Shown: in pieces, positions 5,014 through 48,389 of the stretch
How positions within the stretch are numbered: the stretch's first letter is position 1
How the letters are laid out: each line of letters starts with the position of its first letter
DNA from: Ceratothoa steindachneri
Lineage: Eukaryota > Arthropoda > Malacostraca > Isopoda > Cymothoidae
Assembly: GCA_963969495.1 (NCBI GenBank)
Contig: OZ018321.1
Coordinates: 192,356,204 to 192,420,203, forward strand
DNA: 64,000 nucleotides
Reading direction: 5' to 3'
Program-made: the position numbers and the translations under genes
The notes under the pieces: generated by a model
What the model saw: only the letters and a program-made list of their open reading frames with translations
Databases searched by the model: none
Told to the model about the DNA's origin: nothing

Positions 5014-6660
5014 TTAAGAAATAAGAAGGGGAACAGCGGTATTATCTATGTTGAGTGTAGGAGATTTTGTACGTATTAGTAGGGATTCCAAAATTCTTAG
5101 ACTATATTCATTGTTATTATGACCAATTATTTTGAAGTTATCTATGGAACATTCTGTCTTGCATTGTATACTATGATTTCTAATTACAGAAGCTTCCTTC
5201 TTAGACAATATTTTTCCAGTGAGATGGCTAATTCCCATGTGAGAACAAAACCTCTCTTTCAATGAGCGAACCGTACTACCAATATAGGTTTCTTGCAAAC
5301 AACAAGGACAAGTAAAAGCATAAACAACACGGCTGCTCATTTCTAGAGGAAGTTTGTCTTTTGACGAGAAGAAACTTCCTATGGAAAGTGGGTTAACAAA
5401 AGTGATTTTGAAGTTGGTATGAAAGAAATATTTTTTGAGTAATTTGTTGCATTTTCTAGTCAATAATTTATTGTAAGGTCCCATTTCAGGTAGTACGAAA
5501 TTTTTTTCATTTTTGGGAACATTATATGAGAGAAAGGATGGAGAGTAAATTTTGGTAAGAAAATTATCGATTAGTTTGTCAACCAAAGGTGGGGGGTAAC
5601 AATTATTTTTAAAATAAGACTTTAGAGTCTGGAATTCATTGTGCATTAGGGAATAATTGGAGGAGAGATGGTAACCTCTATATATTAGAGATTTAATTGC
5701 ACTGAGTTTGTGTGACAAGTCACAATGGCTGAAAAAATTGATTCCTAGGCCACTAAAGGTAGGCTTTCTGTATATTGAGGTAGTTAGTTTGTCGGTTTTT
5801 TCTATAATGACGTCTAGAAAAGGAAGTTGATATTACTCTCTAATTCAATGATATATTTAATGTTTGGATGGTAAGAGTTTATAAAATTAAAAAAAATGGT
5901 GGGCATGTTCTATATTATCAAAAATAGCAAAGAAGTCGTCCACATACCTACGATAAAATATGGGTTTGAAATCTAAAGGGCAATGTTTCATAGAGTTATT
6001 TTCAAGATGAATCATGAAAATATTAGCTGCTATTCGAGCAATTGGTGAGCCTATTCCTACTGCATCTATCTCTTGGTAAACCTTGTTATTAAATAAAAAA
6101 TAATTTTCATTAAAACTCATTTCTAAAATAGTCTTGAAATTTTTACGAGAGAAATTGTGAAAGGTGCCTGTTTTGTTAAAAATTAGATTTAAAATAATAT
6201 CAATTGTTTCATTAACAGGAACATTTGTAAATAGTGAGGATACATCGTAACTGACTAGGACTTTTGAGGGTGAAAAATTGTGTGACAATAATTCATTAAC
6301 AAAAGAATAGCTGTTTTTTATGGTGTATTGACCTATGGATAACCCAGAGAGAAATTTAGCAACATATTTAGAAAAGTTAAAAGTTGCAAGAGAATAGGAA
6401 GCCAGAATTGGTCGGAGAGGAACACCAGCTTTGTGTAGCTTAGGGAGGCCGTATAATAAACCTAACCCAGAACCACTAGAATGTAGAGCATCATAAGTTT
6501 GCTGGTCTATAACTTTAGTGGATTTTAGATTTAACAGAACTCTGTTAACTTTATCTTCTAGTTTTAGAGATATTTTTGTAGGTGTTTCTGAGAGCAGTTT
6601 AAATTTTGTTGTGTCTGCAAGTATGGATTCCATTTTAGATTGATAATTTGATTCTCTTGA
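5014..6660 (-). pseudogene. Penelope-like reverse transcriptase with GIY-YIG endonuclease
   Basis: Polymerase of a Penelope-like element: RT followed by a GIY-YIG nuclease that nicks target DNA. The RT part (6633-5887) shows GLPKLHK, the motif A stretch LVSYDVSSLFTNVP, GSPIA, and the active site YRRYVDDFFAIF. A frameshift near 5830-5880 separates it from the C-terminal part (5718-5014). That part has the nuclease core YAFTCPCC...TYIGSTVRSLKERFCSH, ends in a conserved LRILESLLI region, and keeps the CPCC cysteine pair typical of PLE nucleases. The N-terminal RT region is missing, so the gene is 5' truncated. Identification is secure; it is a pseudogene because of the shift and the missing start. 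Confidence 0.9.
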
Positions 6661-26830: not shown

Positions 26831-28195
26831 CAGGGTGACCCTCCAAACGGGCCGCAACTTTCGATAGGCCTCATTTCTTAATTTTCTGCAAGGATTGAAG
26901 GAAACTTTGGTGATAACTAGTTTATTGTGTTTAAAAACATCATATCAAAACATGAGATTCTTTGGACCTTTCTTCTTTATTCTAGAGCACGTGTTCGAGA
27001 CGACCTACATTTAGCTCTGTGCTTTTCCTGAGGCGCAACACAAAGTTGTCCATGACGTCCTTACAAACCGACCGACTAATGGCTGTGATCTCCTTCCTGA
27101 TGGCTTCCTTGAGTTCAATTATGGTCCTGGGTCTCCCTGCGAACACTCTGTCTTTAAGGTAGCCCCAGAGAAAGAAATCTGGGAGGGCTAAGGTTTGGGA
27201 TGTGAGGTGCCTACTCAAAATCAATCTTTAAACTGATCACACGGCCAACAAATTTCTCTTTCAGTAAATTTCTGAACAGGTTTGAGGTGTGAGAACTTGC
27301 TCCATTTTGCTGGAACCAGAACTTCCCCATAAGCGACAAAAACAGGGTCTGTAGCTCGCTCTTGAAAGTTTTGAGGACCTCAACATATCGCTCCTTGGTG
27401 ACTGCCACTGTCGTGCCAGATTCCTCGAACAAGAATGGTTCGATGATGCCTCTGGCTGAGATTGCATTCCATACCATGCAGATAGGGGAGTGTAAGGGCT
27501 TAGTGGCTACCTTATTTGGTCTGGAGGTTCCCCCCATAAGAAATTTGTCTTCTAGTTTACCTTTCCTTCAAGATGGAAGTGAGCTTCATCTGAGGTCCAA
27601 AAGAGGTTAGGAAAGTTGGAGTCTCCTAAATATTTTCCAGTATCTTGAATGCCATAGCCTTTCTATGCTCCTTGTCCGAGGCTATAAGGGTCTGCTTAGT
27701 CTGTATTCTGTATGGGTAGGCATTTACATCAATTAGTAACACTCTCCTACAAGTCTCACGGGATATAATGAGGGACTGACTTCACTTGCACACAGAGCGT
27801 TTTGGACTCTGCTGAACTGACTCTCTCACGCTCTCGACCATTTCAGCTGTACGCTTCCTGTGGCGTCCTGAATGGCTTACGCGGTGGTCACTGGCTGCAT
27901 AGAGGCTCTCCACTGTCCCATAGTTCTCGAAGTAGTCCATCCAGTCTTGACTTCTGCTCTTGGATGGGGCTTTTTCACATTCGAACTGATGCATGAAAGT
28001 GTCCTGCACTTTCTTGAACGAGCCTGTCTTATAGTAATATTTGACGCAGTATATTCTTTTTTGGAGCTCCCATTGAAATATAGTTGTGTTAACAGGCGTT
28101 GCTTCTGTCATGTCCTGCAAAGTAAGGGTGATTAGTGAATGAATAAAGGATATATCATAAAAAGTGTGCGCAGGGGCATTTTTTCGGTCACCCTG
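26831..28195 (-). mobile_element. Mariner B (Tc1/mariner superfamily) in the ATPase gene
   Basis: A 1365 bp element starting and ending with CAGGGTGACC inverted repeats and flanked by TA on both sides (26829-26830, 28196-28197). Coding is on the minus strand. The ATPase reading resumes directly after the right TA. It is a different family from mariners A and C. Confidence 0.9.
26982..28120 (-). pseudogene. Tc1/mariner-superfamily transposase, catalytic residues lost
   Basis: Transposase with an N-terminal helix-turn-helix (28120-27782: AVKYYYKTGSFKK-like region, SQDWMDYFENYGT). The catalytic domain runs on from about 27620. The first Asp region reads WTSDEAHFHLEG. The second reads FWFQQNGASSHTS, where relatives have QQDGA, so Asp is Asn. 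The third reads SQTLALPDFFLWGYLK, where relatives have SPDLTPxDFFLWGYLK, so the third acidic residue is replaced. C-terminal residues end near RLEHVL. Frameshifts separate 28120-27782, 27537-27211 and 27224-26982. Inactive on several counts. Confidence 0.85.
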
Positions 28196-28342
28196 TATAA
28201 AGAAGCCGTCTCAAAGCCCTATGTTTATTTGCTCTGCGACTTTAGTCCGAGAAACACTACGATTTACATCACGGGCAGGAATATTTCCAAACGAAATCGA
28301 GAGCTTATATCTTTAAGAATGAGGCATAAAATGAAAAAATAA
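28196..28342 (+). pseudogene. Polinton packaging ATPase, C-terminal piece
   Basis: Immediately after mariner B the plus strand reads KEAVSKPYVYLLCDFSPRN, matching the family C terminus (pY.YLLxDxxP). After a frame change it reaches ESRAYIFKNEA, then a stop. It is the continuation of 26328-26830. Confidence 0.8.
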
Positions 28343-31383: not shown

Positions 31384-32093
31384 ATGAACCACTGATTGTT
31401 ACGCTTATATCCATCGACGAGTCTGCCATCATCTTTTGGTGCGGTAAATCGGCTAGTCCAATCTGTAAAATAGATCACTAAAAGATCTGATGTGGAAAGC
31501 TTTCTGTCAGGTTTGGATAACTATACATTGCACAAACCCGTGCGAAAATGATTCAAGACAAAACACATAAAAGCACAAGGTCCAAACGAGATTTGGCAGG
31601 TAGATCTTACTGTGATGTCTAAGTTTGAAAGTTTTAATAGTGGTGTACGTTACATACTCTTTGTAATTGGCGTATATTCTAGATATCTCTGGCGAATTCC
31701 TTTAAAGGAGAAGACGGATCAGATGGTGTCAAATGCTATACGAAATCTCATGGAAGAGACCAGATGGATTCCAGGTTATATATGTTCTGATGATGGAGGA
31801 GAGTTTAAAGTAAAGAAGATGAAAGGCTTATTGAGTGAATTTAATATCGGCATTTATCATGTTCACTCGCTTAACAAAGATAGTCTTTTGGAGCGTACAC
31901 AGAGAATAATAAAGGAAAGACTTTCAGAATTTTGGTTTTAATAACACATGGAAATACATTAACGTGTTAGATGATTTTACAAGGGCTTATAATAATTCTG
32001 CATATAGAATGATTGGGAACATACCGTTTAAAGTTATACATGATGTTGCTATACCGAATCAAAGACCTGAATTTAAAAAAAAAGGTTTCTATA
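31384..32093 (+). pseudogene. Polinton integrase, catalytic piece
   Basis: Retroviral-type DDE integrase that inserts the Polinton. It begins with MNH and a stop, then SLPSSFGAVNRL and, after a frame change, LSGLDNYTLHKPVR, an N-terminal region typical of this family. The catalytic core is well kept: IWQVDL (first Asp), CSDDGGEFKVKKM (second Asp) and SLLERTQRIIKERL (Glu). After a frameshift near 31935 it goes on as YINVLDDFTRAYNN. It ends at the CTATA target site (32089-32093) where the tandem LTR array inserted. The triad is present, so decay is from stops and the insertion rather than from active-site loss. Confidence 0.9.
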
Positions 32094-32160
32094 TGTCGTA
32101 GAATTCTTTCTGCTAAGAACCCTACTGACCTGACCTCTGACACCTCTTTTATTTAGTTAG
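32094..32160 (-). repeat. Extra 67 bp at the LTR end resembling a captured primer-site junction
   Basis: A second TGTCGTAGAATG occurs at 32161, which is the terminus seen in the solo LTR at 22466. The added 67 bases contain, on the minus strand, ATAAAAGAGGTGTCAG and later GTAGGGTTCTTAGCAGAAAG. These resemble the internal sequence next to the LTR (ATAAAAGTGGTGTCAG at 35974-35955, then GTAGG...AGAAAG). The same addition is in LTR 2 (35975-36041) and LTR 3 (39923-39989). Confidence 0.75.
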
Positions 32161-33119
32161 TGTCGTAGAATGTCCCTCCTTTTTGTTCTATTCTAAGAGT
32201 GCTAAGAGTGTCTAATATATTGATATTATAAGAATATCTTAATGAACTGAGCCTTTACCAAACACGTCAGGATATAAAAGAAACGCCCACTAATTCACAA
32301 AATAAACTTATATTTTATCTTTAACCATTGAATACACAACCTTTATACTTTAACTACAGCAATACTCTAAATATTATTATAAACAAGAATTAATTAAATT
32401 AGTTGACCCACAAAATTAAGTTCACGTTTTCTCTAGACAAAACAATAATATTAGAATTAGGCTTACGGACTCGTGGAGTTTAAAGGGCCTCAGAAATATT
32501 TACACTTGACGCGTGTAGATGGGCGGAATTCCACGGTCGTCTTGGCGAGGGTAGCAGCTGGGGGGTCCACACGTTCTTCCGGGGGGGGGGGGATTCTTCA
32601 AGGACGAGAATCAATACGGTGCTCTATGCAACACCCAGGTAGTCGTGGTCTCTCTGGCGAGAGTGAGTTGAACTTGGTTCTTGAATCAAGCTTACTTGGA
32701 GTGCGGTGTGATCACCGAGTAACGAGCTCGAGGAGGAGCTTTTCCTTCGTTACTAATTTCCTTATGGACGAGGACTGAACTCGGGGAGGGTCTTCTTCAC
32801 GGGCGAGGATGACGGAGGGGGGTTTCTCTGGCGAGAATAAGTTACTTACAGTTTGGTGTGGCCACCGAATAACGGGCTCGAGGGGGAGCCTTTTCCTTCT
32901 TCTTCTTAATTCCTCAAAGACGAGGAATACCTCTGGTGTTTAATGTGCACCAGGATATGAGGAATCTCTCTGGCGAGAGTAAGTCGAACTTACCAAAGTT
33001 CACTTATTGTTTGGTTTGACAACCAGGGACTTAGCTCAAGGATGAGCTTTTTCTTAGTCCCTTAAGGTAGGTAGCCCTGCCTCTCTTGCAGGGTGCTTCT
33101 TGGTCTGGCGACACAAGTA

Positions 33120-33392
33120 AACTACCTCTCCAGTCTCGGTAGCTCGGTTGGGGATCCGAGGACTTCGTCACCTAGAGACTGACGTATACTACCAATCCAG
33201 TCTAGGTAGCCCGGTTGGGGATCCGAGGACTTCGTCACCTGGCCTGACGTATACTACCTATCCAGTCTAAGGTAGCCCGGTTTTGGAACCGAGGACTTCG
33301 TCACCTGGCCTGACGTATACTACCTATCCAGTCTAAGGTAGCCCGGTTTTGGAACCGAGGACTTCGTCACCTGGCCTGACGTATACTACCAG
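33120..33392. repeat. 66 bp tandem repeat within LTR 1
   Basis: Unit with CCAGTCTAAGGTAGCCCGG, GAGGACTTCGTCACC and TGACGTATACTACC. Four copies here, five in LTR 2 (about 37010-37339) and five in LTR 3 (about 40957-41287). Copies in the right half are identical; the leftmost is most diverged. Confidence 0.9.
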
Positions 33393-33896
33393 ATTTTCCT
33401 CAGAGTTCCTCCTTTATACCTCGCACCCCCACTGGGGGAGTGGTAAGGGGGGGGAGCTTGAGGACGGCCCCAGGAGAGTTCTCTTCCCAAACGGTCTTTC
33501 CCACGAAGTCAAACATCTGCTCCTCGTTAGCCATCGAGGTTGGGAGAAAACCGTCTCCAATTTCTTGTTCGACGTGAAACTGGATCTCACTCTCCTGGGG
33601 GGAGATCTTTACCTTTTTGACCTTTAGGGTCTTACATGGCCCCTAGTTATGCCACCCAGTGGTCAAACTTTCGCCTCGCCGATGCCTGGGGCGGATGTCC
33701 TTGTGGTAACCACCGCCTTGGGACTGCATCACGAGTGAACGATGGGGGGGGGTGACCTCTTTCATGGCACGGTCTGGGGCAGTGCTGCGGTCACGCGGGA
33801 CCCGCCGATGCCTTCGGCCGGATGTCTTTGCGGTGACCGCCTTGGAACTGCACCAAGAGTGAACGAGGGGGGGGGGGAAGTGACCATTCCCTTACA

Positions 33897-33907
33897 CACC
33901 TCCCACC
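33897..33907 (-). promoter_or_regulatory. Polypurine tract next to LTR 1
   Basis: On the minus strand GGTGGGAGGTG directly precedes the LTR start TGTAAGGG. It is the expected plus-strand priming tract and sets the element's sense as minus. The same tract is at 37845-37855. Confidence 0.7.
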
Positions 33908-34242
33908 GAAGAAAATAATGGGGGGGCGGGGGATGCTCACGGGAACTCAAAACAACTTACTCAACCTAGTCGAGCTTAGCAAAGTTGTATTTCTTTGAGC
34001 CCTCCCTTACATTAAGTTTCCTTACATATGAGCGCCCACGCGCGCGTTTACACAGGCAATGTGTCGAGCTAGACACTCGATTTACAATTTTACATGAACA
34101 TAACAAAACCTTAATTCATCGATTACCCATAAAAAAAAACAACAAAACAAGCTACTTCCTTACATTTCTAAGTTTTTGAGAACTTAATTCCTACCGATAA
34201 ATATTTACACGAACAACAACTGAAAACATGGTTTCACGCTCA

Positions 34243-35655
34243 TTAGGTGCTGAAATAACCCTCAATTGTATTTCGTCTCCGCCTATAGAGCAGCTGTCCT
34301 TTATCGGCTCCTTTGAGGTAGCTAATACTAAAATGGTGCTCTGTGACCATTATTCTACCGCGCCTGAGTCGGCCGTCCTGGTTATAGAGTCTACCCAAGT
34401 ATGTTACTAAATGGTAGTGGTATTTCAACCTACTCGACTTACTCATATTATGGTACTTGACTACCTTTAAATTGAACATTAAGGCTTGAGCGGCCTGTTG
34501 TAGCGGGGCATAATTGATGGGAGCGTAGGTCCCATAGCTTTCCTTTAACCAGGTACACGGGAAGATCGTGTCTGGGTTCGATCTTTGGGGATCGAGAAAA
34601 TTTTTCCCCGCGAGGTCGTTAATGGGCTTGGCGCTCACTATGACTTGGCGATTTAGCGGTAACTCCGTGGACGTTCCGTTCGGGGAGGAGACTACTAGGG
34701 GTAGGGGATACTCATCCGCGTCTACCATTTGACTAGTCTTACCTGAAGGTATTGCAATAGCACCTCTTTCCTCCTTCCTTGTCAACTCATTTGACCCGAT
34801 TCTCTTGGTAGGTAGTTCCTCAGGTACACCTGCTCGTACCTCTACCCTACCTTCTTCTTCTTCCCAGATAACCCCATTTGGCTGGGTTCTCCTCGTAGGG
34901 TTTCCTTTAGGTACTCCTGCTGGTACCTCATCCCTACTTCCTACTTGTTCCATCGTTACCCCAATTGGCTGGGTTTCCCTCGATGGTCCTTTCTTAGGTC
35001 CAGGCCGGGCTCCAACTTCCTCGGCCTCTATGAGATTCTCGATAGATGCTCTTTCGAGTGCGAGCAATCTTTCCTTTTCTTCTCTCTCTTCTCTTTCCGC
35101 TTGAGCACGTTCTATTTCCCTCTTCATTCTCCTTTCATCTATTTCTTTTTTAATCTTTATTCTCCTCTCTTTTGACTCTTTTTCCATCTTCATTCTCCTT
35201 TCCTCGGCTTCTTGTTCTGCTTTCGCTATTTCGTTTTCCCGTTGAGTTCTTCTTTCTTCATCTTCCAGCTTTATCTTTAGTCTTCTTTCTTCATCTTCCA
35301 TTTCTATCCTTATTCTGAATTCTTGTGCTTCTCTTTTCAACAATATTATTCTTTCGCTTGTTTTACCTCCTCTCAGCATTCTTCTTTCCTCTGTTTCTAT
35401 TTTCCGCTGTATTCGGGATTCTTCACTATTCCGGTTCATCCATATTTCCATTAATTCACGTTCTCTTGTATCCTCTCTTATTATATCCTCTTTTTCTCTC
35501 TCAAACTTTATTAATTCTTGTTCCTTTTCTATATCCCAAATTCTTTCTTCTTCTACACAATCAATTCTTAATTCTGCCATGACGTAGTCATGCATTTCTG
35601 TGCCTTCAAGTCCCAGACTTTGGGCTTGTTGGTAAAATCTTTTGACTGGATCCAT
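34243..35655 (-). CDS. Gag-like coiled-coil protein of the array, copy 1 (470 aa)
   Basis: Intact open frame from ATG 35655 in the first internal region. Residues 1-30 (MDPVKRFYQQAQSLGLEG...) lead into a very charged Glu/Arg/Lys-rich coiled coil over about residues 35-215, with ERRMKMEKESKERRIKIKKE-type heptads. A Pro/Gly/Thr-rich linker follows (about 220-345), with imperfect repeats around PxGVPxxxPTRRTQPxGV. The C-terminal region is basic, with YHYHLVTYLGRLYN and RRRRN. No zinc knuckle, protease or RT is seen. The start resembles the Gypsy gag at 46805 (short leader, then charged helix), so a Gag role is inferred. It is identical in translation to the second copy. Confidence 0.7.
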   Translation of the reverse strand: MDPVKRFYQQAQSLGLEGTEMHDYVMAELRIDCVEEERIWDIEKEQELIKFEREKEDIIREDTRERELMEIWMNRNSEESRIQRKIETEERRMLRGGKTSERIILLKREAQEFRIRIEMEDEERRLKIKLEDEERRTQRENEIAKAEQEAEERRMKMEKESKERRIKIKKEIDERRMKREIERAQAEREEREEKERLLALERASIENLIEAEEVGARPGPKKGPSRETQPIGVTMEQVGSRDEVPAGVPKGNPTRRTQPNGVIWEEEEGRVEVRAGVPEELPTKRIGSNELTRKEERGAIAIPSGKTSQMVDADEYPLPLVVSSPNGTSTELPLNRQVIVSAKPINDLAGKNFLDPQRSNPDTIFPCTWLKESYGTYAPINYAPLQQAAQALMFNLKVVKYHNMSKSSRLKYHYHLVTYLGRLYNQDGRLRRGRIMVTEHHFSISYLKGADKGQLLYRRRRNTIEGYFST

Positions 35656-35951
35656 TTCGTGTTGGTCCGTCGATTTTTCCTTTCTGTATTTTCAGATAAT
35701 TATGCCGCCACTCACCAGGTAGCGCTCAGCATAAATAACCCTTAATCCCACTACTATGCTGATTGAAATATCACTCCCGACCTCAAATTTACCACTTGAC
35801 CTACCAATTACCTTTATATTGTTACCACCCCTAACTCTACCAATTTTCCTCTCGTCAATTATTCTCTTATTCCTGATCTTCCTTTACGTGTTGGCTCTTT
35901 CCTAATTAGACACTGCTGGGTTCTTTCTAATAATAACCTACAAAACCTCTA

Positions 35952-35974
35952 GACCTGACACCACTTTTATAATA
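35952..35974 (-). promoter_or_regulatory. Putative primer binding site region
   Basis: Directly inside the 5' LTR on the minus strand the sequence TATTATAAAAGTGGTGTCAG holds TGGTGTCAG, a primer-site type known in some Gypsy elements. The matching tRNA cannot be proved from here. The same sequence is at 39900-39922. Confidence 0.5.
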
Positions 35975-37844
35975 TGTCGTAGAATTCTTTCTGCTAAGAA
36001 CCCTACTGACCTGACCTCTGACACCTCTTTTATTTAGTTAGTGTCGTAGAATGTCCCTCCTTTTTGTTCTATTCTAAGAGTGCTAAGAGTGTCTAATATA
36101 TTGATATTATAAGAATATCTTAATGAACTGAGCCTTTACCAAACACGTCAGGATATAAAAGAAACGCCCACTAATTCACAAAATAAACTTATATTTTATC
36201 TTTAACCATTGAATACACAACCTTTATACTTTAACTACAGCAATACTCTAAATATTATTATAAACAAGAATTAATTAAATTAGTTGACCCACAAAATTAA
36301 GTTCACGTTTTCTCTAGACAAAACAATAATATTAGAATTAGGCTTACGGACTCGTGGAGTTTAAAGGGCCTCAGAAATATTTACACTTGACGCGTGTAGA
36401 TGGGCGGAATTCCACGGTCGTCTTGGCGAGGGTAGCAGCTGGGGGGGTCCACACGTTCTTCCGGGGGGGGGGGATTCTTCAAGGACGAGAATCAATACGG
36501 TGCTCTATGCAACACCCAGGTAGTCGTGGTCTCTCTGGCGAGAGTGAGTTGAACTTGGTTCTTGAATCAAGCTTACTTGGAGTGCGGTGTGATCACCGAG
36601 TAACGAGCTCGAGGAGGAGCTTTTCCTTCGTTACTAATTTCCTTATGGACGAGGACTGAACTCGGGGAGGGTCTTCTTCACGGGCGAGGATGACGGAGGG
36701 GGGTTTCTCTGGCGAGAATAAGTTACTTACAGTTTGGTGTGGCCACCGAATAACGGGCTCGAGGGGGAGCCTTTTCCTTCTTCTTCTTAATTCCTCAAAG
36801 ACGAGGAATACCTCTGGTGTTTAATGTGCACCAGGATATGAGGAATCTCTCTGGCGAGAGTAAGTCGAACTTACCAAAGTTCACTTATTGTTTGGTTTGA
36901 CAACCAGGGACTTAGCTCAAGGATGAGCTTTTTCTTAGTCCCTTAAGGTAGGTAGCCCTGCCTCTCTTGCAGGGTGCTTCTTGGTCTGGCGACACAAGTA
37001 AACTACCTCTCCAGTCTCGGTAGCTCGGTTGGGGATCCGAGGACTTCGTCACCTAGAGACTGACGTATACTACCAATCCAGTCTAGGTAGCCCGGTTGGG
37101 GATCCGAGGACTTCGTCACCTGGCCTGACGTATACTACCTATCCAGTCTAAGGTAGCCCGGTTTTGGAACCGAGGACTTCGTCACCTGGCCTGACGTATA
37201 CTACCTATCCAGTCTAAGGTAGCCCGGTTTTGGAACCGAGGACTTCGTCACCTGGCCTGACGTATACTACCTATCCAGTCTAAGGTAGCCCGGTTTTGGA
37301 ACCGAGGACTTCGTCACCTGGCCTGACGTATACTACCAGATTTTCCTCAGAGTTCCTCCTTTATACCTCGCACCCCCACTGGGGGAGTGGTAAGGGGGGG
37401 GAGCTTGAGGACGGCCCCAGGAGAGTTCTCTTCCCAAACGGTCTTTCCCACGAAGTCAAACATCTGCTCCTCGTTAGCCATCGAGGTTGGGAGAAAACCG
37501 TCTCCAATTTCTTGTTCGACGTGAAACTGGATCTCACTCTCCTGGGGGGAGATCTTTACCTTTTTGACCTTTAGGGTCTTACATGGCCCCTAGTTATGCC
37601 ACCCAGTGGTCAAACTTTCGCCTCGCCGATGCCTGGGGCGGATGTCCTTGTGGTAACCACCGCCTTGGGACTGCATCACGAGTGAACGATGGGGGGGGGT
37701 GACCTCTTTCATGGCACGGTCTGGGGCAGTGCTGCGGTCACGCGGGACCCGCCGATGCCTTCGGCCGGATGTCTTTGCGGTGACCGCCTTGGAACTGCAC
37801 CAAGAGTGAACGAGGGGGGGGGGGGAAGTGACCATTCCCTTACA
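35975..37844 (-). repeat. LTR 2 of the array, 1870 bp
   Basis: Shared between the two internal regions. It has five 66 bp repeats; otherwise it matches LTR 1 except for G-run lengths. Confidence 0.9.
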
Positions 37845-38190
37845 CACCTCCCACCGAAGAAAATAATGGGGGGGCGGGGGATGCTCACGGGAACTCAAAA
37901 CAACTTACTCAACCTAGTCGAGCTTAGCAAAGTTGTATTTCTTTGAGCCCTCCCTTACATTAAGTTTCCTTACATATGAGCGCCCACGCGCGCGTTTACA
38001 CAGGCAATGTGTCGAGCTAGACACTCGATTTACAATTTTACATGAACATAACAAAACCTTAATTCATCGATTACCCATAAAAAAAAACAACAAAACAAGC
38101 TACTTCCTTACATTTCTAAGTTTTTGAGAACTTAATTCCTACCGATAAATATTTACACGAACAACAACTGAAAACATGGTTTCACGCTCA

Positions 38191-39603
38191 TTAGGTGCTG
38201 AAATAACCCTCAATTGTATTTCGTCTCCGCCTATAGAGCAGCTGTCCTTTATCGGCTCCTTTGAGGTAGCTAATACTAAAATGGTGCTCTGTGACCATTA
38301 TTCTACCGCGCCTGAGTCGGCCGTCCTGGTTATAGAGTCTACCCAAGTATGTTACTAAATGGTAGTGGTATTTCAACCTACTCGACTTACTCATATTATG
38401 GTACTTGACTACCTTTAAATTGAACATTAAGGCTTGAGCGGCCTGTTGTAGCGGGGCATAATTGATGGGAGCGTAGGTCCCATAGCTTTCCTTTAACCAG
38501 GTACACGGGAAGATCGTGTCTGGGTTCGATCTTTGGGGATCGAGAAAATTTTTCCCCGCGAGGTCGTTAATGGGCTTGGCGCTCACTATGACTTGGCGAT
38601 TTAGCGGTAACTCCGTGGACGTTCCGTTCGGGGAGGAGACTACTAGGGGTAGGGGATACTCATCCGCGTCTACCATTTGACTAGTCTTACCTGAAGGTAT
38701 TGCAATAGCACCTCTTTCCTCCTTCCTTGTCAACTCATTTGACCCGATTCTCTTGGTAGGTAGTTCCTCAGGTACACCTGCTCGTACCTCTACCCTACCT
38801 TCTTCTTCTTCCCAGATAACCCCATTTGGCTGGGTTCTCCTCGTAGGGTTTCCTTTAGGTACTCCTGCTGGTACCTCATCCCTACTTCCTACTTGTTCCA
38901 TCGTTACCCCAATTGGCTGGGTTTCCCTCGATGGTCCTTTCTTAGGTCCAGGCCGGGCTCCAACTTCCTCGGCCTCTATGAGATTCTCGATAGATGCTCT
39001 TTCGAGTGCGAGCAATCTTTCCTTTTCTTCTCTCTCTTCTCTTTCCGCTTGAGCACGTTCTATTTCCCTCTTCATTCTCCTTTCATCTATTTCTTTTTTA
39101 ATCTTTATTCTCCTCTCTTTTGACTCTTTTTCCATCTTCATTCTCCTTTCCTCGGCTTCTTGTTCTGCTTTCGCTATTTCGTTTTCCCGTTGAGTTCTTC
39201 TTTCTTCATCTTCCAGCTTTATCTTTAGTCTTCTTTCTTCATCTTCCATTTCTATCCTTATTCTGAATTCTTGTGCTTCTCTTTTCAACAATATTATTCT
39301 TTCGCTTGTTTTACCTCCTCTCAGCATTCTTCTTTCCTCTGTTTCTATTTTCCGCTGTATTCGGGATTCTTCACTATTCCGGTTCATCCATATTTCCATT
39401 AATTCACGTTCTCTTGTATCCTCTCTTATTATATCCTCTTTTTCTCTCTCAAACTTTATTAATTCTTGTTCCTTTTCTATATCCCAAATTCTTTCTTCTT
39501 CTACACAATCAATTCTTAATTCTGCCATGACGTAGTCATGCATTTCTGTGCCTTCAAGTCCCAGACTTTGGGCTTGTTGGTAAAATCTTTTGACTGGATC
39601 CAT
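38191..39603 (-). CDS. Gag-like coiled-coil protein of the array, copy 2 (470 aa)
   Basis: Same length and same predicted protein as 34243-35655, at the same distance from its flanking LTRs. Lack of any amino-acid change between the two copies supports very recent duplication, or an assembly duplication. No function beyond a structural Gag-like role can be proposed. Confidence 0.7.
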   Translation of the reverse strand: MDPVKRFYQQAQSLGLEGTEMHDYVMAELRIDCVEEERIWDIEKEQELIKFEREKEDIIREDTRERELMEIWMNRNSEESRIQRKIETEERRMLRGGKTSERIILLKREAQEFRIRIEMEDEERRLKIKLEDEERRTQRENEIAKAEQEAEERRMKMEKESKERRIKIKKEIDERRMKREIERAQAEREEREEKERLLALERASIENLIEAEEVGARPGPKKGPSRETQPIGVTMEQVGSRDEVPAGVPKGNPTRRTQPNGVIWEEEEGRVEVRAGVPEELPTKRIGSNELTRKEERGAIAIPSGKTSQMVDADEYPLPLVVSSPNGTSTELPLNRQVIVSAKPINDLAGKNFLDPQRSNPDTIFPCTWLKESYGTYAPINYAPLQQAAQALMFNLKVVKYHNMSKSSRLKYHYHLVTYLGRLYNQDGRLRRGRIMVTEHHFSISYLKGADKGQLLYRRRRNTIEGYFST

Positions 39604-39922
39604 TTCGTGTTGGTCCGTCGATTTTTCCTTTCTGTATTTTCAGATAATTATGCCGCCACTCACCAGGTAGCGCTCAGCATAAATAACCCTTAATCCCACT
39701 ACTATGCTGATTGAAATATCACTCCCGACCTCAAATTTACCACTTGACCTACCAATTACCTTTATATTGTTACCACCCCTAACTCTACCAATTTTCCTCT
39801 CGTCAATTATTCTCTTATTCCTGATCTTCCTTTACGTGTTGGCTCTTTCCTAATTAGACACTGCTGGGTTCTTTCTAATAATAACCTACAAAACCTCTAG
39901 ACCTGACACCACTTTTATAATA

Positions 39923-41789
39923 TGTCGTAGAATTCTTTCTGCTAAGAACCCTACTGACCTGACCTCTGACACCTCTTTTATTTAGTTAGTGTCGTAGAAT
40001 GTCCCTCCTTTTTGTTCTATTCTAAGAGTGCTAAGAGTGTCTAATATATTGATATTATAAGAATATCTTAATGAACTGAGCCTTTACCAAACACGTCAGG
40101 ATATAAAAGAAACGCCCACTAATTCACAAAATAAACTTATATTTTATCTTTAACCATTGAATACACAACCTTTATACTTTAACTACAGCAATACTCTAAA
40201 TATTATTATAAACAAGAATTAATTAAATTAGTTGACCCACAAAATTAAGTTCACGTTTTCTCTAGACAAAACAATAATATTAGAATTAGGCTTACGGACT
40301 CGTGGAGTTTAAAGGGCCTCAGAAATATTTACACTTGACGCGTGTAGATGGGCGGAATTCCACGGTCGTCTTGGCGAGGGTAGCAGCTGGGGGGGTCCAC
40401 ACGTTCTTCCGGGGGGGGGGATTCTTCAAGGACGAGAATCAATACGGTGCTCTATGCAACACCCAGGTAGTCGTGGTCTCTCTGGCGAGAGTGAGTTGAA
40501 CTTGGTTCTTGAATCAAGCTTACTTGGAGTGCGGTGTGATCACCGAGTAACGAGCTCGAGGAGGAGCTTTTCCTTCGTTACTAATTTCCTTATGGACGAG
40601 GACTGAACTCGGGGAGGGTCTTCTTCACGGGCGAGGATGACGGAGGGGGGTTTCTCTGGCGAGAATAAGTTACTTACAGTTTGGTGTGGCCACCGAATAA
40701 CGGGCTCGAGGGGGAGCCTTTTCCTTCTTCTTCTTAATTCCTCAAAGACGAGGAATACCTCTGGTGTTTAATGTGCACCAGGATATGAGGAATCTCTCTG
40801 GCGAGAGTAAGTCGAACTTACCAAAGTTCACTTATTGTTTGGTTTGACAACCAGGGACTTAGCTCAAGGATGAGCTTTTTCTTAGTCCCTTAAGGTAGGT
40901 AGCCCTGCCTCTCTTGCAGGGTGCTTCTTGGTCTGGCGACACAAGTAAACTACCTCTCCAGTCTCGGTAGCTCGGTTGGGGATCCGAGGACTTCGTCACC
41001 TAGAGACTGACGTATACTACCAATCCAGTCTAGGTAGCCCGGTTGGGGATCCGAGGACTTCGTCACCTGGCCTGACGTATACTACCTATCCAGTCTAAGG
41101 TAGCCCGGTTTTGGAACCGAGGACTTCGTCACCTGGCCTGACGTATACTACCTATCCAGTCTAAGGTAGCCCGGTTTTGGAACCGAGGACTTCGTCACCT
41201 GGCCTGACGTATACTACCTATCCAGTCTAAGGTAGCCCGGTTTTGGAACCGAGGACTTCGTCACCTGGCCTGACGTATACTACCAGATTTTCCTCAGAGT
41301 TCCTCCTTTATACCTCGCACCCCCACTGGGGGAGTGGTAAGGGGGGGGAGCTTGAGGACGGCCCCAGGAGAGTTCTCTTCCCAAACGGTCTTTCCCACGA
41401 AGTCAAACATCTGCTCCTCGTTAGCCATCGAGGTTGGGAGAAAACCGTCTCCAATTTCTTGTTCGACGTGAAACTGGATCTCACTCTCCTGGGGGGAGAT
41501 CTTTACCTTTTTGACCTTTAGGGTCTTACATGGCCCCTAGTTATGCCACCCAGTGGTCAAACTTTCGCCTCGCCGATGCCTGGGGCGGATGTCCTTGTGG
41601 TAACCACCGCCTTGGGACTGCATCACGAGTGAACGATGGGGGGGGGTGACCTCTTTCATGGCACGGTCTGGGGCAGTGCTGCGGTCACGCGGGACCCGCC
41701 GATGCCTTCGGCCGGATGTCTTTGCGGTGACCGCCTTGGAACTGCACCAAGAGTGAACGAGGGGGGGGGGAAGTGACCATTCCCTTACA
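39923..41789 (-). repeat. LTR 3 of the array, 1867 bp
   Basis: Five 66 bp repeats. It ends CCTTACA at 41789 and is followed by the CTATA target duplication. Confidence 0.9.
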
Positions 41790-42125
41790 CTATATAAGAT
41801 CGGCGATTATGTTTGAATCTCACGCGTTCCAGTAATTTTAAAAAAGGATACGAGGTAGGGTGGAGTGAGGCAATCTAAAAGATATATAGGATTTCAAATC
41901 TATTAGACCTGTATTATATTGAAGATTTAAATGGAGAACATATTGAAGGTGGGATTTATGAAGATGAACTAGAAAAAGTAAAATTTGACTCCCGTAAGGA
42001 ATATGTAGTGGAGAAAATAGTTAAATGGAAAGCACATGGAAAAAAAACAAGCGATATTTAGAAAAATGGTAAGAGTACCCAAATTCGTTTAACTCATTCA
42101 TAAAGACATGTGATATCACCCACTA
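41790..42125 (+). pseudogene. Polinton integrase, C-terminal piece with chromodomain-like end
   Basis: Reading resumes after the array: YKIGDYV and RVPVILKKGYEVGWSEAIF across a frame change, then YIEDLNGEHIEGGIYEDELE, a typical integrase C-terminal SH3-like region. Next come YVVEKIVKW and, after a stop or frameshift near 42061, EYPNSFNSFI, matching the chromodomain signature YPxxFNSWI. It is the continuation of 31384-32093. Confidence 0.85.
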
Positions 42126-42183
42126 ACCTTGAGCACATGCATTCGTGAAATAATATAAAGTTGGTTATTTATCAGTTGTGAAG

Positions 42184-43005
42184 ATGGAGTCAGAGATTTT
42201 TTATGTTCCTTCTTCCTCCCTGGATGTTAATCCTCAAAATATCATGTCTGACTATAGATTTGAAAATCACAAATCCATTAAAACAGACCACAGTCAGTAT
42301 GAACTAGAACTTTCTTAGTTTCAATTTACAGGGAATATTTAGAATATTACTAAGCTTACACATGCATTCACAGTCTATCGGAAAATGACGGAAGTAAATA
42401 ATTATGCATCGAATACTATAATGGTAAGAGGAAAGGAAACAAAAATAAAAGGTATTGACTATGCTTATCATGAGATATGGATAGACGCCGTGTATTATAA
42501 AAAATGAAAAAGCACTCATTGAGAAAATGAATCTAAAAATGAGAGAGAAATTATCATCTCAAGATTTACTCTTTCAATCTGACAAAACGCAACGCAAAAT
42601 TTCTACTGGCTATGTGTTAATGCTCACTTCAGGTTCATTGCTCAATGTGAAAATGAAAGAAAATCTCTTACATCATCTGTCAGAACAATTTTCCAAGATA
42701 ATGGAAAAATCTATCAGAAATGTTATCCAAAATTAAATCATTATATAGCGTTTAATAGAGATTTTCCTACTTTTATATCTCATCCGAAATCATCTTACAT
42801 TTAATCTAACCTTGTAGACTATCAGTTAGTATGCGGGACCCATTCGAGGCTGATGAGAATTATTCACCTTCTTTCGAATGATGGTTCATTCAGTATAACC
42901 TTTGATAATCTACACTATCTGAATCTAAGTTGAGGGAACTTGAGATCAATTTATATCTCCATATATAAGAACGGTTGAAGGGGGAAATTTTCCATTCTTT
43001 CTTGG
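42184..43005 (+). pseudogene. Probable Polinton minor capsid protein, decayed
   Basis: Starts at ATG 42184 (MESEIFYVPSSSLDVNPQ) and can be followed through several stops and frameshifts over about 270 codons. Readable stretches include NNYASNTIMVRGKET, YHEIWIDAVYYKK, HYIAFNRDFPTFISHP and SFDDKT near the end. Between integrase and major capsid, Polintons usually carry the penton-like minor capsid gene, and length and position fit. I cannot confirm a jelly-roll fold by eye, so the call rests mainly on position. Confidence 0.4.
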
Positions 43006-43789: not shown

Positions 43790-45290
43790 AGGTATAAACT
43801 CGAGCGTATAAGGCGACCATTGTTGCTTTTTACATTTCACAAATATGCGAGGGGTTTGTGATCCGTCTCTACAAGGAACTCTTTACCAAATAAATGCATT
43901 CTAAACTTCTGTATGGCCCATATAATGACTAGAGCCTACTTTTCGATAATGGCATAATTTTTCTCGCGCGGGAGAAGCTTACGGCTAGCGTAGGCGATGG
44001 GTTAACTATCGCCACCATTGATATACTGGAGTAAAACGCAACCTAGCCCTTCACTACTGGCATCGGTTTTGATACCAAATGTCTTCTTAGGGTTGGAGAG
44101 CCGGAGGATAGGGGCGGAAGCTAATATTCCTTTCAGCTGTTCGAAGTGGGAGAGAGCTAATGGGGACTAGACAAGGTGTTCCAGGGAATTCTTTATCAGC
44201 TAGTCAGAAAAAGTGGCGGAGAAAGAGGTGAAATGAGGAGCGAAGCGGCGGTAGAAAGAAGTAGATCCCATGGAGGATCTCAGCTGCTTCTTGTTCGATG
44301 GACAGGGCATTTCCACAATGGCGCGGATTTAGTCCTCCTGGGAAGGCCAATCAGTTGTGTCCAATGTGAAAGCCAAGGTAGTCAATCGTACTATAAGCAA
44401 AATAGCACTTGTTCGGACCGATTGTGAGTCCATGCTCGCGTCAGCGACACAGCAGGGCCTGGAGGGCGATCACGCGATGGTCCCACTCGCGAGTTGCTAC
44501 ATAAATGTTTTTGAAATAAAAAGTCACGTTTGCCAACATGTCTAATATTCTTCGCATCATGCGGTTGTAATTATTAAAAGCCGTCACCAAGCCGAAAGGG
44601 AGACGGCGGAACTGCATTAAGCTCTTGTCCGTGGAGGAAGCCGTGAATCTCTTTACGCCTTCTTTAAGGGGAATTTGATAGTAAGCTTTACATAGGTTCA
44701 AAACTCCACCTCTTCAAAGAGATGGAGTTTTGGTCGTTCAAAGAGATAAGCTCAACATCGAACAAAGTCACCCAATTAAGTTTCCGAAAATCAACGTACA
44801 GCCTATATGACCAGTCTGACTTCTTTACCAACACAGTGGGGGAACAGTAACTAGATTAGGAGGGTTCTATTATTCTTAACTTTAACAATTTAGTTACTTC
44901 TGCGTTGAAGAGCTCTCTTGAATGGATGGGCAGGGGGTACAGCTTGGAATGAATAGGCTCCAGGATGGTTAAAATAATATCATGCTCAAACTGAGTGGCA
45001 CAGCCGGGAATCTCTGAGATCACATCTCCAAAGTTACTCAGTAGCTGCTGCAGCTGACTCTTCAAATCGGGAGGCAGCTGGGCGTTAACGTCCAAGTCGG
45101 GTGACTGGGAATCGGTGGCGCTGGGCACGGTGGGAATGGAGTACTCCTTGTCCTGTTCTATGCAAGTCACCTGCACCACATTTAGCGGATCTAGGGGGTA
45201 GTCTGCTTCAATGGCTGACTCCTCATCAATGGCCACGATATTATTGATGCAAGCTAGTTGTTGGTACCTCTTGAGCATGTTTAAGTAGTA
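43790..45290 (-). pseudogene. Gypsy pol: reverse transcriptase and RNase H, inactive
   Basis: RT N-terminal region 45278-44856: LLSNFGDVISEIPGC, HDIILTILEPIHSK, LLKLRIIEPS. Finger/palm 44701-44441: NLCKAYYQIPLKEGVKRF and RRLPFGLVTAFNNYNRMMRR, then the active site FYFKNIYVAT, where the catalytic YxDD is changed to FKN, so both aspartates are lost. RNase H from about 44090: KTFGIKTDASSEGLGCVLLQ, YASRKLLPREKNY and FLVETDHKPLAYL, keeping DAS and TDHKPL. Stops and shifts lie between, and the integrase is missing. Confidence 0.85.
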
Positions 45291-45765
45291 CAGCTTGTCT
45301 CCAGACGGAGTTCGAATGAGACAGTTAACGGGGTTGCAAATTTCGACGACAGGGAAGGGTCTCTTCCATTGACTTAGGAGTTTATTATTTTCGGTGGGGA
45401 GTAATAATAAAACTTCCTCGCCGAGATTGAATCCTTATTAAACTTTTGATCAAAATACGTTTTGTATTTGTCTAAGTTCTTGTCCGCGTTCTGAAAAGCA
45501 ATTTCAGCACACTTTTTAACCTCTGCCGAAGTTCTAATAGATATGCATAGGAAGATTGGATTTCCTGGTCCAATTCTTGGTGCGAAAAGTTTACTGATTC
45601 GGCATCAAATTTCAAGGTTCCTGGGGAGCTCTTCTTGAACAAGAAATTAATCTGATGGCCAGCGGCAGGAGAAGCAGACGGAGAGGGAGGGGGTTCAACT
45701 TGCGACGGTGGTGGTTTGAGGGAAGCACAAACTTGGTGCACTTGACTGAGAGAACTAAGACGGAA

Positions 45766-46805
45766 TTAGGAGTTCTGATGGCAGTTGGTCCTCAAATGTC
45801 CTTCAACACCGCAGGAGAAACACAGGATGGGCCTCCTGGGGGAAGTAAGGCGAAGGGGGATTCGATGAAAATGGCTTGACATCACGGGGTTCGGACGAAG
45901 AAATTTTCTGGGCTTGGAGGGGCCATTTATTTTTACGAACTTGCTAGGGTCATGGGGTGTAAATTTTTGTTTGCCACTTTTACCTTTGGGGGACGAGGGT
46001 TCAGCCTTTCTTCCTTCCTTAGGGTAGCAATTGTGGCTCGCAGCGAATACATCGGCTTCTTCGATGCATTTCTTGAAGGTGTAACACCTCCAGTCCTTCA
46101 CAAAAGATCGAATCTCAGAAGAAAGCGATGCCAAAAGCTGGTCCTTCAGAATGAAGTCGAGTAACGCTTCATACTCGTGGGGAACTTTCGAAAAATCAAG
46201 CCAGAAGTTGAAATATCTGAAGCATATACCCAAAGAGTCGAAAAGTTTGATTGGGTTGTATACGGGCGTGACGAAATTTAACGCGGTAGAAATCGGGCGT
46301 CATTTTATACGTGGCTAACAATTCCAATTTCAACGTCAAATAGTCGATCGTTGCCTCCGACGGGAGGGATATGCAAATATCTCGGAGCTTAGAGCATACC
46401 AACGGCAGGAGTTTATTGACAACATCCGCTTCAATGTCCCACTTGTTTAGCTCGAAGAACTTTTCAAAATGCATTAAATAGGACCCGAAATCTTCTCCTT
46501 CCTTGTAAACGGGGAGCTTCACGGACGCAGTTTGTGGGACATCATTCCGCGAGTTAACGGAGATCGTCTCGATCCTCGCTCTAATCATTTCCAGTTCATG
46601 TCGTCGGATGCTTTCTCTTTCTTCTTTTTCTTTCTCACGTTCTTCTGTCTCTTTATCTCGTTCTTCTCTCTATTTCTTTAGTTCTTCTCTCTATCTTCTT
46701 TTCGCTCTCGCGGCTCTCTTTTTTTTCTTGTATATAGGACAGAAGGTCGTTTCCGGAAAACCAAGAGATTCACCTTGTAATTTAAATTGGTCGAATGAAG
46801 ACATG
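45766..46805 (-). pseudogene. Gypsy gag with zinc knuckle
   Basis: Starts at ATG 46805 (MSSFDQFKLQGESLGFPETT), then a charged Glu/Arg/Lys helix with stops near 46660-46690. The capsid-like domain covers 46588-46196: KLPVYKEGEDFGSYLMHFEK, VNKLLPLVCSKLRDICISLP. After a frameshift (46233-45766) come EYEALLDFILKDQLLASL and a zinc knuckle CFSCGVEGHLRTNC (C-x2-C-x4-H-x4-C). This is a complete Gag layout, disabled by stops and one frameshift. Confidence 0.85.
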
Positions 46806-47435: not shown

Positions 47436-48389
47436 AATGAGGGTCTTTCAACAAGGACGCTTGAGCTTTGTCAGGCGATAGTGGCCATGTTGTTAAAGCT
47501 GGATCTGGCAACCTCACTGTGAACTGTTCAGTAGTACTTGGAAAGTCACGATGGAAGGCTGTAGCGTTGAACAGCGTGTGCAAATCATCAAATGTTATTA
47601 TAAAAATCAGTGCTCCTTTCGACAAAAGTTCCGCGCATTTCGTGATTCCTATCCTCTTCAGCGACGAGGCCCATTTTTGGATGAATGGATTTGTGAACAA
47701 GCAAGATTGTTGGATTTAGGACGAAAACAATCCACATGAGATACACCAGCACCAATTGCATCCCAACAAAGTCACTGTTTGGTGCGGATTTTCGTCTAAC
47801 GGAATCATCAGTCCGTATTTTTTTTGAGAACGAAGATGGGATTGCCATAACCGTCAACGGCGAGACCTACAGATCAATGATAAGCAACTTCTTGTGGCCT
47901 CAACTGGATTATATGCCTGATATGGATACTGAGGACATGTGGTTCCAACAGGACGGTGCTACGTGCCACACTGCGCACGCCATGATAGACATTTTGCACC
48001 AGCAATTTCAGGGCAGGGTCATCTTGCACGGAGGCGACGTCAACTGGCCACTAATATCATGTGATTTAACGCCATTAGACTACTTTCTTTGGTGCTACCT
48101 TAAATCGCAGGTCTATGCGAATAATCCGCAAATAGTTGATTTCTTCAAAGTCAACATAACGAATACCATCCAGCAAATTCAGCCAGATTTATGCGACAAA
48201 GTCATCGAAAATTGGGCCTCCCGAATACGTTCTACCAAGCAAAGCCGCAGCGGACTTTTGAAAGACGTCATATTCCACACTAAATGCCATAAAATGTACT
48301 TTCAAATTTAAAATAAATTGAGTGCATATATTACACACAACTTGTTTTATTTACATTTAAAAATTGAGGGATCTTATTGAAAGACCCTT
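47436..48389 (+). mobile_element. Mariner C, internally deleted, in the Gypsy LTR
   Basis: Ends AATGAGGGTCTTTCAACAAG and, from the right on the minus strand, AAGGGTCTTTCAATAAGATC are inverted repeats. TA flanks both sides (47434-47435, 48390-48391). About 100 codons between the DNA-binding and catalytic regions are missing. Confidence 0.85.
47551..48311 (+). pseudogene. Tc1/mariner-superfamily transposase, internal deletion
   Basis: N-terminal helix-turn-helix piece MEGCSVEQRVQIIKCYYKN and CSFRQKFRAFRDSY, then an abrupt jump to FSDEAHFWMNGFVNKQDCW (first catalytic Asp region). After a frameshift near 47720 the long frame 47736-48311 carries KVTVWCGF (other frame), IAITVNGETYRSM, MWFQQDGATCHTA (second Asp) and SCDLTPLDYFLWCYLKSQVY (third Asp). 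It ends near DVIFHTKC. The catalytic triad is present; the linker and part of the DNA-binding domain are deleted. Confidence 0.85.

What the first reader, a model, noticed from the sequence alone, without database searches (positions are those of the whole stretch)
32089..41794. Three-LTR, two-internal tandem retrotransposon array inside one target duplication
The sequence shows LTR-int-LTR-int-LTR with a single CTATA duplication outside and no duplication at the inner junctions. Both internals are exactly 2078 bp with identical 470 aa ORFs. LTRs differ only in G-runs and one 66 bp repeat. A single insertion later expanded by unequal crossing-over between LTRs, or an integrated tandem cDNA, would give this. 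Such arrays are known but uncommon, and the near identity makes this one very recent. An assembly duplication is the main competing explanation.
Basis: partly seen in the sequence, partly recalled or inferred. Interest (0 to 1): 0.75.

Follow-up and report, generated by a model that had tools for sequence, protein, structure and literature searches.

The report
Tandem three-LTR retrotransposon array
A young, apparently non-autonomous jumping element sits here as a head-to-tail double copy sharing its middle repeat, inside one target-site duplication; it looks like a real but ordinary recombination product, of a kind already described in plants and animals, and at least two more occur in the same genome.

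Summary
In detail: LTR-internal-LTR-internal-LTR at 32094-41789, CTATA once on each outer side, no duplication at the inner junctions, two identical 2078-bp internals with identical 470-aa ORFs, and LTRs without substitutions (G-runs and one 66-bp unit differ). Eight of eight fetched paralogous copies of the flanking Polinton-like sequence run straight through the site, so one clean insertion site is well supported. Among the 40 scored matches this exact internal occurs only here; the nearest of 20 compared copies differs at 13 sites, and those 20 differ from each other at a median of 23. This argues for one insertion duplicated on itself. All 38 other loci of that search are plain LTR-int-LTR. 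Other searches found two more arrays (C8, C24), each with its own pair of identical internals; C24 lacks a matching outer duplication. The middle LTR is never the odd one at five informative LTR markers, which mildly favours unequal exchange between 5' and 3' LTRs over an integrated tandem cDNA. Such arrays are published for rice and other plants and for bivalve TRIMs. No reads were available, so an assembly error is unlikely but not excluded. New member of a known kind; modest interest.

The parts
32089..32093 (.). target-site duplication CTATA, left copy
   Evidence: CTATA once in 7 of 8 fetched paralogous empty sites, TTATA in the eighth (L075)
32094..33896 (-). 3' LTR (sense), 1803 bp, four 66-bp units
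33117..33390 (-). 66-bp tandem units in the 3' LTR
33897..35974 (-). internal region of second unit, 2078 bp
34243..35655 (-). 470-aa ORF; no Pfam match; predicted N-terminal long helices
35954..35963 (-). primer-binding-site-like TGGTGTCAGG, 11 nt inside the LTR edge
   Evidence: tRNA match recalled, not tested
35975..37844 (-). shared middle LTR, 1870 bp, five 66-bp units
36998..37337 (-). 66-bp tandem units in the middle LTR
37845..39922 (-). internal region of first unit, 2078 bp, identical to the other
38191..39603 (-). 470-aa ORF, identical copy
39902..39911 (-). primer-binding-site-like TGGTGTCAGG of the first unit
39923..41789 (-). 5' LTR (sense), 1867 bp, five 66-bp units
40945..41284 (-). 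66-bp tandem units in the 5' LTR
41790..41794 (.). target-site duplication CTATA, right copy
31500..32093 (+). left flank with Polinton-like integrase region, repeated in the genome (39 other scored loci at 86-91% identity)
41795..42300 (+). right flank, continuous with the left flank in 8 of 8 fetched paralogous copies

Best explanation
One young, apparently non-autonomous LTR element inserted once into an old Polinton-like copy, making the CTATA duplication. Later, by unequal exchange between sister chromatids or homologues, the 3' LTR of one copy recombined with the 5' LTR of the other. That doubled the LTR-plus-internal unit and left a hybrid middle LTR. Shown: single insertion site, one target duplication, identical internals whose sequence was not seen elsewhere among scored copies. 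Inferred: that the doubling was LTR-LTR exchange after insertion.
For: Structure and single TSD. Paralogous copies run through the site without the element, 8 of 8 fetched of 39 scored. Internals 0 differences of 2078, whereas 190 pairs among 20 other copies have a median of 23 differences with 1 pair at 0, and the nearest of those 20 to the array differs at 13 (about 2040 bp compared). All 38 other loci of the first family search are single. Two further arrays, also with identical internals: C8 (L067, single GGAAG duplication) and C24 (L076). LTR markers: of five at which exactly two of three LTRs agree (66-bp unit and run 1397 here; runs 445 and 1112 in L067; run 19 in L076), the middle LTR is never the odd one; it is like the 3' LTR at the far-left marker (L076) and like the 5' LTR at the other four, as expected of hybrids broken in the left third of the LTR or thereabouts. 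Single copies also carry small indel differences between their two LTRs, 19 of 19 pairs measured, so such markers can predate the exchange.
Against: Four of the five markers are homopolymer lengths, prone to slippage and sequencing error, and no one array has markers on both sides of a breakpoint. At runs 19 and 1371 of the window array and run 19 of L067 all three LTRs differ. With random changes the middle LTR would escape being odd at five markers about 13% of the time (own estimate). The C24 array has no matching outer duplication, although 37 of 38 single copies have one; a simple duplication of one intact insertion does not explain that. Only one solo LTR, the reciprocal product, was seen among 21 loci; the search meant to count solo LTRs did not complete.
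Confidence: 0.6

Rival explanations
1. The element arrived already doubled: a tandem cDNA, for example reverse-transcribed from a read-through RNA of a one-LTR circle or an older array, was integrated in one step.
For: Also gives one target duplication and identical internals; two of three arrays have a clean outer duplication. No array shows a substitution between LTRs apart from the LTR tip in L067. Discussed as possible alongside recombination for rice by PMC11899658 (Discussion).
Against: Both outer LTRs would be copied from one template and should agree with each other more than with the middle one; at five informative markers this is seen in 0 of 5. The markers are few and weak.
Confidence: 0.25
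2. Assembly error: two haplotypes or reads of one LTR-int-LTR insertion were joined head to tail through the LTR.
For: LTRs are 1.8 kb and nearly identical, and no reads were available to check. The three arrays found all have exactly two units.
Against: The three LTRs are not copies of one another (66-bp unit count, G-runs). All 38 other loci of the first family search are assembled as singles. The assembly is in long contigs (529 for 3.93 Gb). The sequencing technology is unknown to me.
Confidence: 0.12
3. A cDNA from another copy of the family recombined into a resident element, or two neighbouring insertions fused by LTR recombination.
For: Tandem formation by cDNA recombination is cited for yeast Ty5 in PMC11899658 (section 3 and reference-list passage; the original was not read). 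One pair of the 20 compared single copies does have identical internals (L014-L015), so two sibling copies are not impossible.
Against: Internals are identical while other copies differ; flanks are continuous with no lost sequence; one outer duplication only.
Confidence: 0.03

Closest known systems
Tandem LTR-retrotransposon structures of rice and other plants (TLI1, TLI2; PMC11899658)
   Same: Alternating LTRs and internals that begin and end with an LTR, flanked by a target duplication; TLI2 has three LTRs and two internals, lies inside another transposon (a MULE) within a 5-nt repeat, and has 99% identity of internals and LTRs (passages; sections 3, 10, 12, 13).
   Different: The 28 selected rice tandems carry conserved retrotransposon protein domains; this element has none recognised.
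biv-TRIM tandem arrays in bivalves (PMC6934838)
   Same: An animal non-autonomous LTR element forming TDRx_I(x-1) arrays as well as single and solo forms (passages).
   Different: biv-TRIM is a miniature element with arrays up to TDR58_I57; here the LTRs are 1.8 kb, there is a 470-aa ORF, and only two-unit arrays were seen (3 of 3).
Kangaroo endogenous retrovirus megasatellite and Drosophila double TE insertions
   Same: Cited in PMC11899658 as tandem LTR-element or tandem TE structures in animals (the original papers were not read, one was not held).
   Different: Kangaroo structures are centromeric megasatellites as cited; here an isolated two-unit array.

Membership tests
Tandem LTR-retrotransposon structure (as in PMC11899658) | Alternating LTR and internal units beginning and ending with an LTR | tested here: met
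Tandem LTR-retrotransposon structure (as in PMC11899658) | One outer target-site duplication, none at inner junctions | tested here: met
Tandem LTR-retrotransposon structure (as in PMC11899658) | Confirmed by reads or by empty alleles at the same locus | not testable with these tools
   no reads and no second individual; only paralogous empty sites
LTR retrotransposon | Direct LTRs with TG...CA ends and a 5-bp duplication | tested here: met
   an exact 5-bp duplication at the LTR edges in 36 of 38 single copies plus L011 (37 of 38; L025 lacks it); a few single copies end in TA instead of CA
LTR retrotransposon | Primer binding site complementary to a host tRNA | tested here: inconclusive
   TGGTGTCAGG lies 11 nt inside the LTR edge; resemblance to a tRNA-Leu 3' end is recalled, the host tRNA was not searched
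Autonomous Gypsy, Copia or BEL element | Encodes protease, reverse transcriptase, RNase H and integrase | tested here: not met
   the only ORF of at least 150 aa in each internal is the 470-aa one, with no Pfam match at E 0.1
TRIM | Short LTRs and a very short non-coding internal region (sizes recalled) | tested here: not met
   LTRs 1.8 kb, internal 2078 bp with a 470-aa ORF
TR-GAG (gag-only non-autonomous element; definition recalled) | ORF with a recognisable GAG domain | tested here: not met
   no Pfam match at E 0.1, no homologue among the candidates scored in the protein search

The most novel reading that the evidence does not exclude
The family moves in part as ready-made doubles: tandem cDNA or circle-derived RNA is integrated as one unit, so two-unit arrays are transposition products of this pol-less element rather than later chromosomal recombinants.
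Probability: 0.2. Interest if true: 0.55.

Novelty: new member of a known kind. Interest (0 to 1): 0.27.

Why it matters
How tandem LTR arrays arise is stated to be unsettled in PMC11899658 (Discussion). An apparently large, young family (4467 first-look candidates, 40 scored) with variable 66-bp unit counts in its LTRs (1 to 10 seen) offers built-in markers to tell LTR-LTR exchange from tandem cDNA integration across many arrays. For a single locus the importance is small.

Tried and rejected
Two independent insertions or nested insertion: rejected by identical internals, a single duplication and continuous empty sites.

Named RNA structure in the LTR repeats: Rfam found nothing at gathering score in the window, and one poor miRNA match within 32000-36000 at E 0.42; not pursued.

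Identity of the 470-aa protein: no Pfam match, no homologue at E 0.001 among the 7992 candidates scored, no significant BLASTP relation to the gag-like ORF at 46196-46669 (best E 0.29). A single-sequence AlphaFold model has mean pLDDT 56, with helices to about residue 213 at good confidence and pLDDT under 50 from residue 231 on; I did not search folds with it. A resemblance of the N-terminus to invertebrate Gypsy gag is recalled only.

Autonomous partner, solo-LTR count and a second frequency estimate: not obtained. The genome search was answered four times and was busy at all other attempts.

Script faults: the first duplication checks took wrong LTR edges in part of the copies; one search repeats the check with fixed anchors, and itself took a wrong anchor in L011.

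Full report
Observation. The window holds LTR-internal-LTR-internal-LTR at 32094-41789 with the element's sense on the minus strand. LTRs are 1803, 1870 and 1867 bp; both internals are 2078 bp and identical; CTATA flanks the whole once on each side and the inner junctions show only internal ends. The LTRs have no substitutions; they differ in lengths of G-runs and in one 66-bp unit (5, 5 and 4 units in sense order 5', middle, 3'). Each internal holds the same 470-aa ORF.

Insertion site. The left flank (31500-32093) is repeated in the genome: 40 of 1228 first-look candidates were scored, the window itself and 39 other loci at 86-91% identity. I fetched the eight best of these 39 with the downstream side; in 8 of 8 the sequence continues across the joined window flanks with no element and one copy of the duplicated target (TTATA instead of CTATA in one, L075). 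So the array occupies one clean site, with no flank sequence lost.

Family. A DNA search of the genome with the internal (3.93 Gb, 529 contigs) gave 4467 first-look candidates, 40 scored: two are the internals of the array, 38 are other loci. I fetched the best 20 of these 38 with about 4 kb on each side; 20 of 20 are plain LTR-int-LTR (hits under 120 bases dropped). For the other 18, short stretches at the outer LTR ends showed no internal sequence outside the LTRs in 18 of 18; one of them needed a second pair of stretches. So 38 of 38 are single. An exact 5-bp duplication sits at the LTR edges of 37 of 38 (36, L011; not L025). The number of 66-bp units varies between the 20 copies from 2 to 10, but agrees between the two LTRs of a copy in 19 of 20; the exception is L026, 4 and 5 (L009, missed in part there).

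More arrays. A query spanning the inner junction scored 21 loci of 8569 first-look candidates. By my reading of the table one is another array (C8), one a solo LTR (C6), one a single element with apparently longer LTRs (C36), and 18 are ordinary singles. The window's own array was not among the 21 scored, so this search misses arrays. The C8 locus was fetched (L067): three LTRs, two identical 2071-bp internals with the ORF open in both, GGAAG once on each outer side, and 68 substitutions from the window's internal. A protein query scored 90 matches of 55580 first-look candidates; by spacing these are 88 loci, two of them doubles: the window, which is the query, and C24. C24 was fetched (L076): three LTRs, two identical 2073-bp internals by the edges used there, 45 substitutions from the window. 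Its outer flanks do not match as a duplication. The three arrays differ in sequence and so arose separately.

Which duplication? Among 20 single copies, 190 pairs of internals differ at a median of 23 sites and only 1 pair is identical (L014-L015); the array's internal is 13 or more from all 20 (about 2040 bp compared). In one search only the array's own two internals match the query at 100%. Two identical internals side by side with a sequence seen nowhere else among the scored copies therefore point to self-duplication. For timing: with the U5 end left out, single copies have 16 substitutions over 19 LTR pairs, 6 of 19 pairs having none (L027 was dropped because its LTR anchor was not found). 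The array with none is young but ordinary for this family.

Exchange or tandem cDNA? Unequal exchange predicts a middle LTR whose left part (sense) comes from the 3' LTR and right part from the 5' LTR. Tandem cDNA predicts outer LTRs more alike than either is to the middle. Five markers are informative (exactly two of three LTRs agree): the 66-bp unit and the run at 1397 in the window, runs 445 and 1112 in L067, and run 19 in L076. The middle LTR agrees with the 5' LTR at the first four and with the 3' LTR at the last, leftmost one; it is never the odd one. Three further runs differ in all three LTRs, and the tip base of the L067 3' LTR was left out because it abuts the target. This leans to exchange but rests mostly on homopolymers, and no single array shows both halves of the hybrid.

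The element. It lacks recognisable pol and gag domains and no homologue was found, yet its ORF is well kept: open in 20 of 20 fetched single copies and in 88 of 90 scored matches. Among 93 distinct coding substitutions none makes a stop, against 4.9 expected under a site-shuffled neutral model (P 0.006); the excess of synonymous changes is not significant (P 0.06). The copies were picked for likeness to an intact query, which biases this. I read it as a selected protein of an apparently non-autonomous LTR element whose enzymes come from an unidentified partner (inference).

Known or new. PMC11899658 (abstract, sections 3, 10, 12, 13 and passages read) describes the same architecture in rice, including three LTRs and two internals nested in another transposon, and says that exchange and tandem insertion both seem possible. 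PMC6934838 (passages) describes tandem arrays in bivalves and mentions cestodes. Cassandra arrays (PMC7215508) and maize Wukong (PMC4528315) were seen in a search listing only. The structure is a new instance of a known kind.

Noticed in passing
window 34243-35655 and 38191-39603; genome-wide: The 470-aa ORF has no recognised domain or homologue but is kept open in 20 of 20 fetched single copies and 88 of 90 scored matches, suggesting a selected protein in a pol-less LTR element.
   Followed up: partly
inner (sense 3') ends of the LTRs, e.g. 35975-36080 and 39923-40030, minus strand: U5 holds a second copy of the LTR-edge-plus-PBS-like motif (CTACGACA ... GGTGTCAG, with small variants) shortly before the real edge in the array and 19 of 20 fetched copies; L027's 5' LTR lacks it. 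It looks like an LTR that once grew by taking in its own PBS.
   Followed up: partly
G000:C36:20913217-20919028: A family member whose two LTRs both seem about 54 bp longer, taking in the PBS region, with about 89 query bases unmatched at the internal start (table only).
   Followed up: no
5' LTR edge to PBS in L009-L028: The spacer between the 5' LTR edge and the PBS varies between copies, and about 14 of 30 substitutions between paired LTRs fall in the last 30 or so bases of U5 (19 pairs; 30 with it, 16 without it), while 3' LTR tips are nearly uniform.
   Followed up: partly
window 5014-6633 (-), 44441-46669 (-), 27782-28210 (-), 47736-48311 (+): Remnants of other mobile elements: two weak RT domain hits (5887-6633, 44441-44713), a zinc-knuckle gag-like piece, a DUF4817 hit, and pieces that look Penelope-like and mariner/Tc-like by eye (labels recalled).
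   Followed up: no
L076 (C24:26366750-26376650): Array with identical internals but no matching outer duplication, unlike the other two arrays and unlike 37 of 38 single copies.
   Followed up: partly
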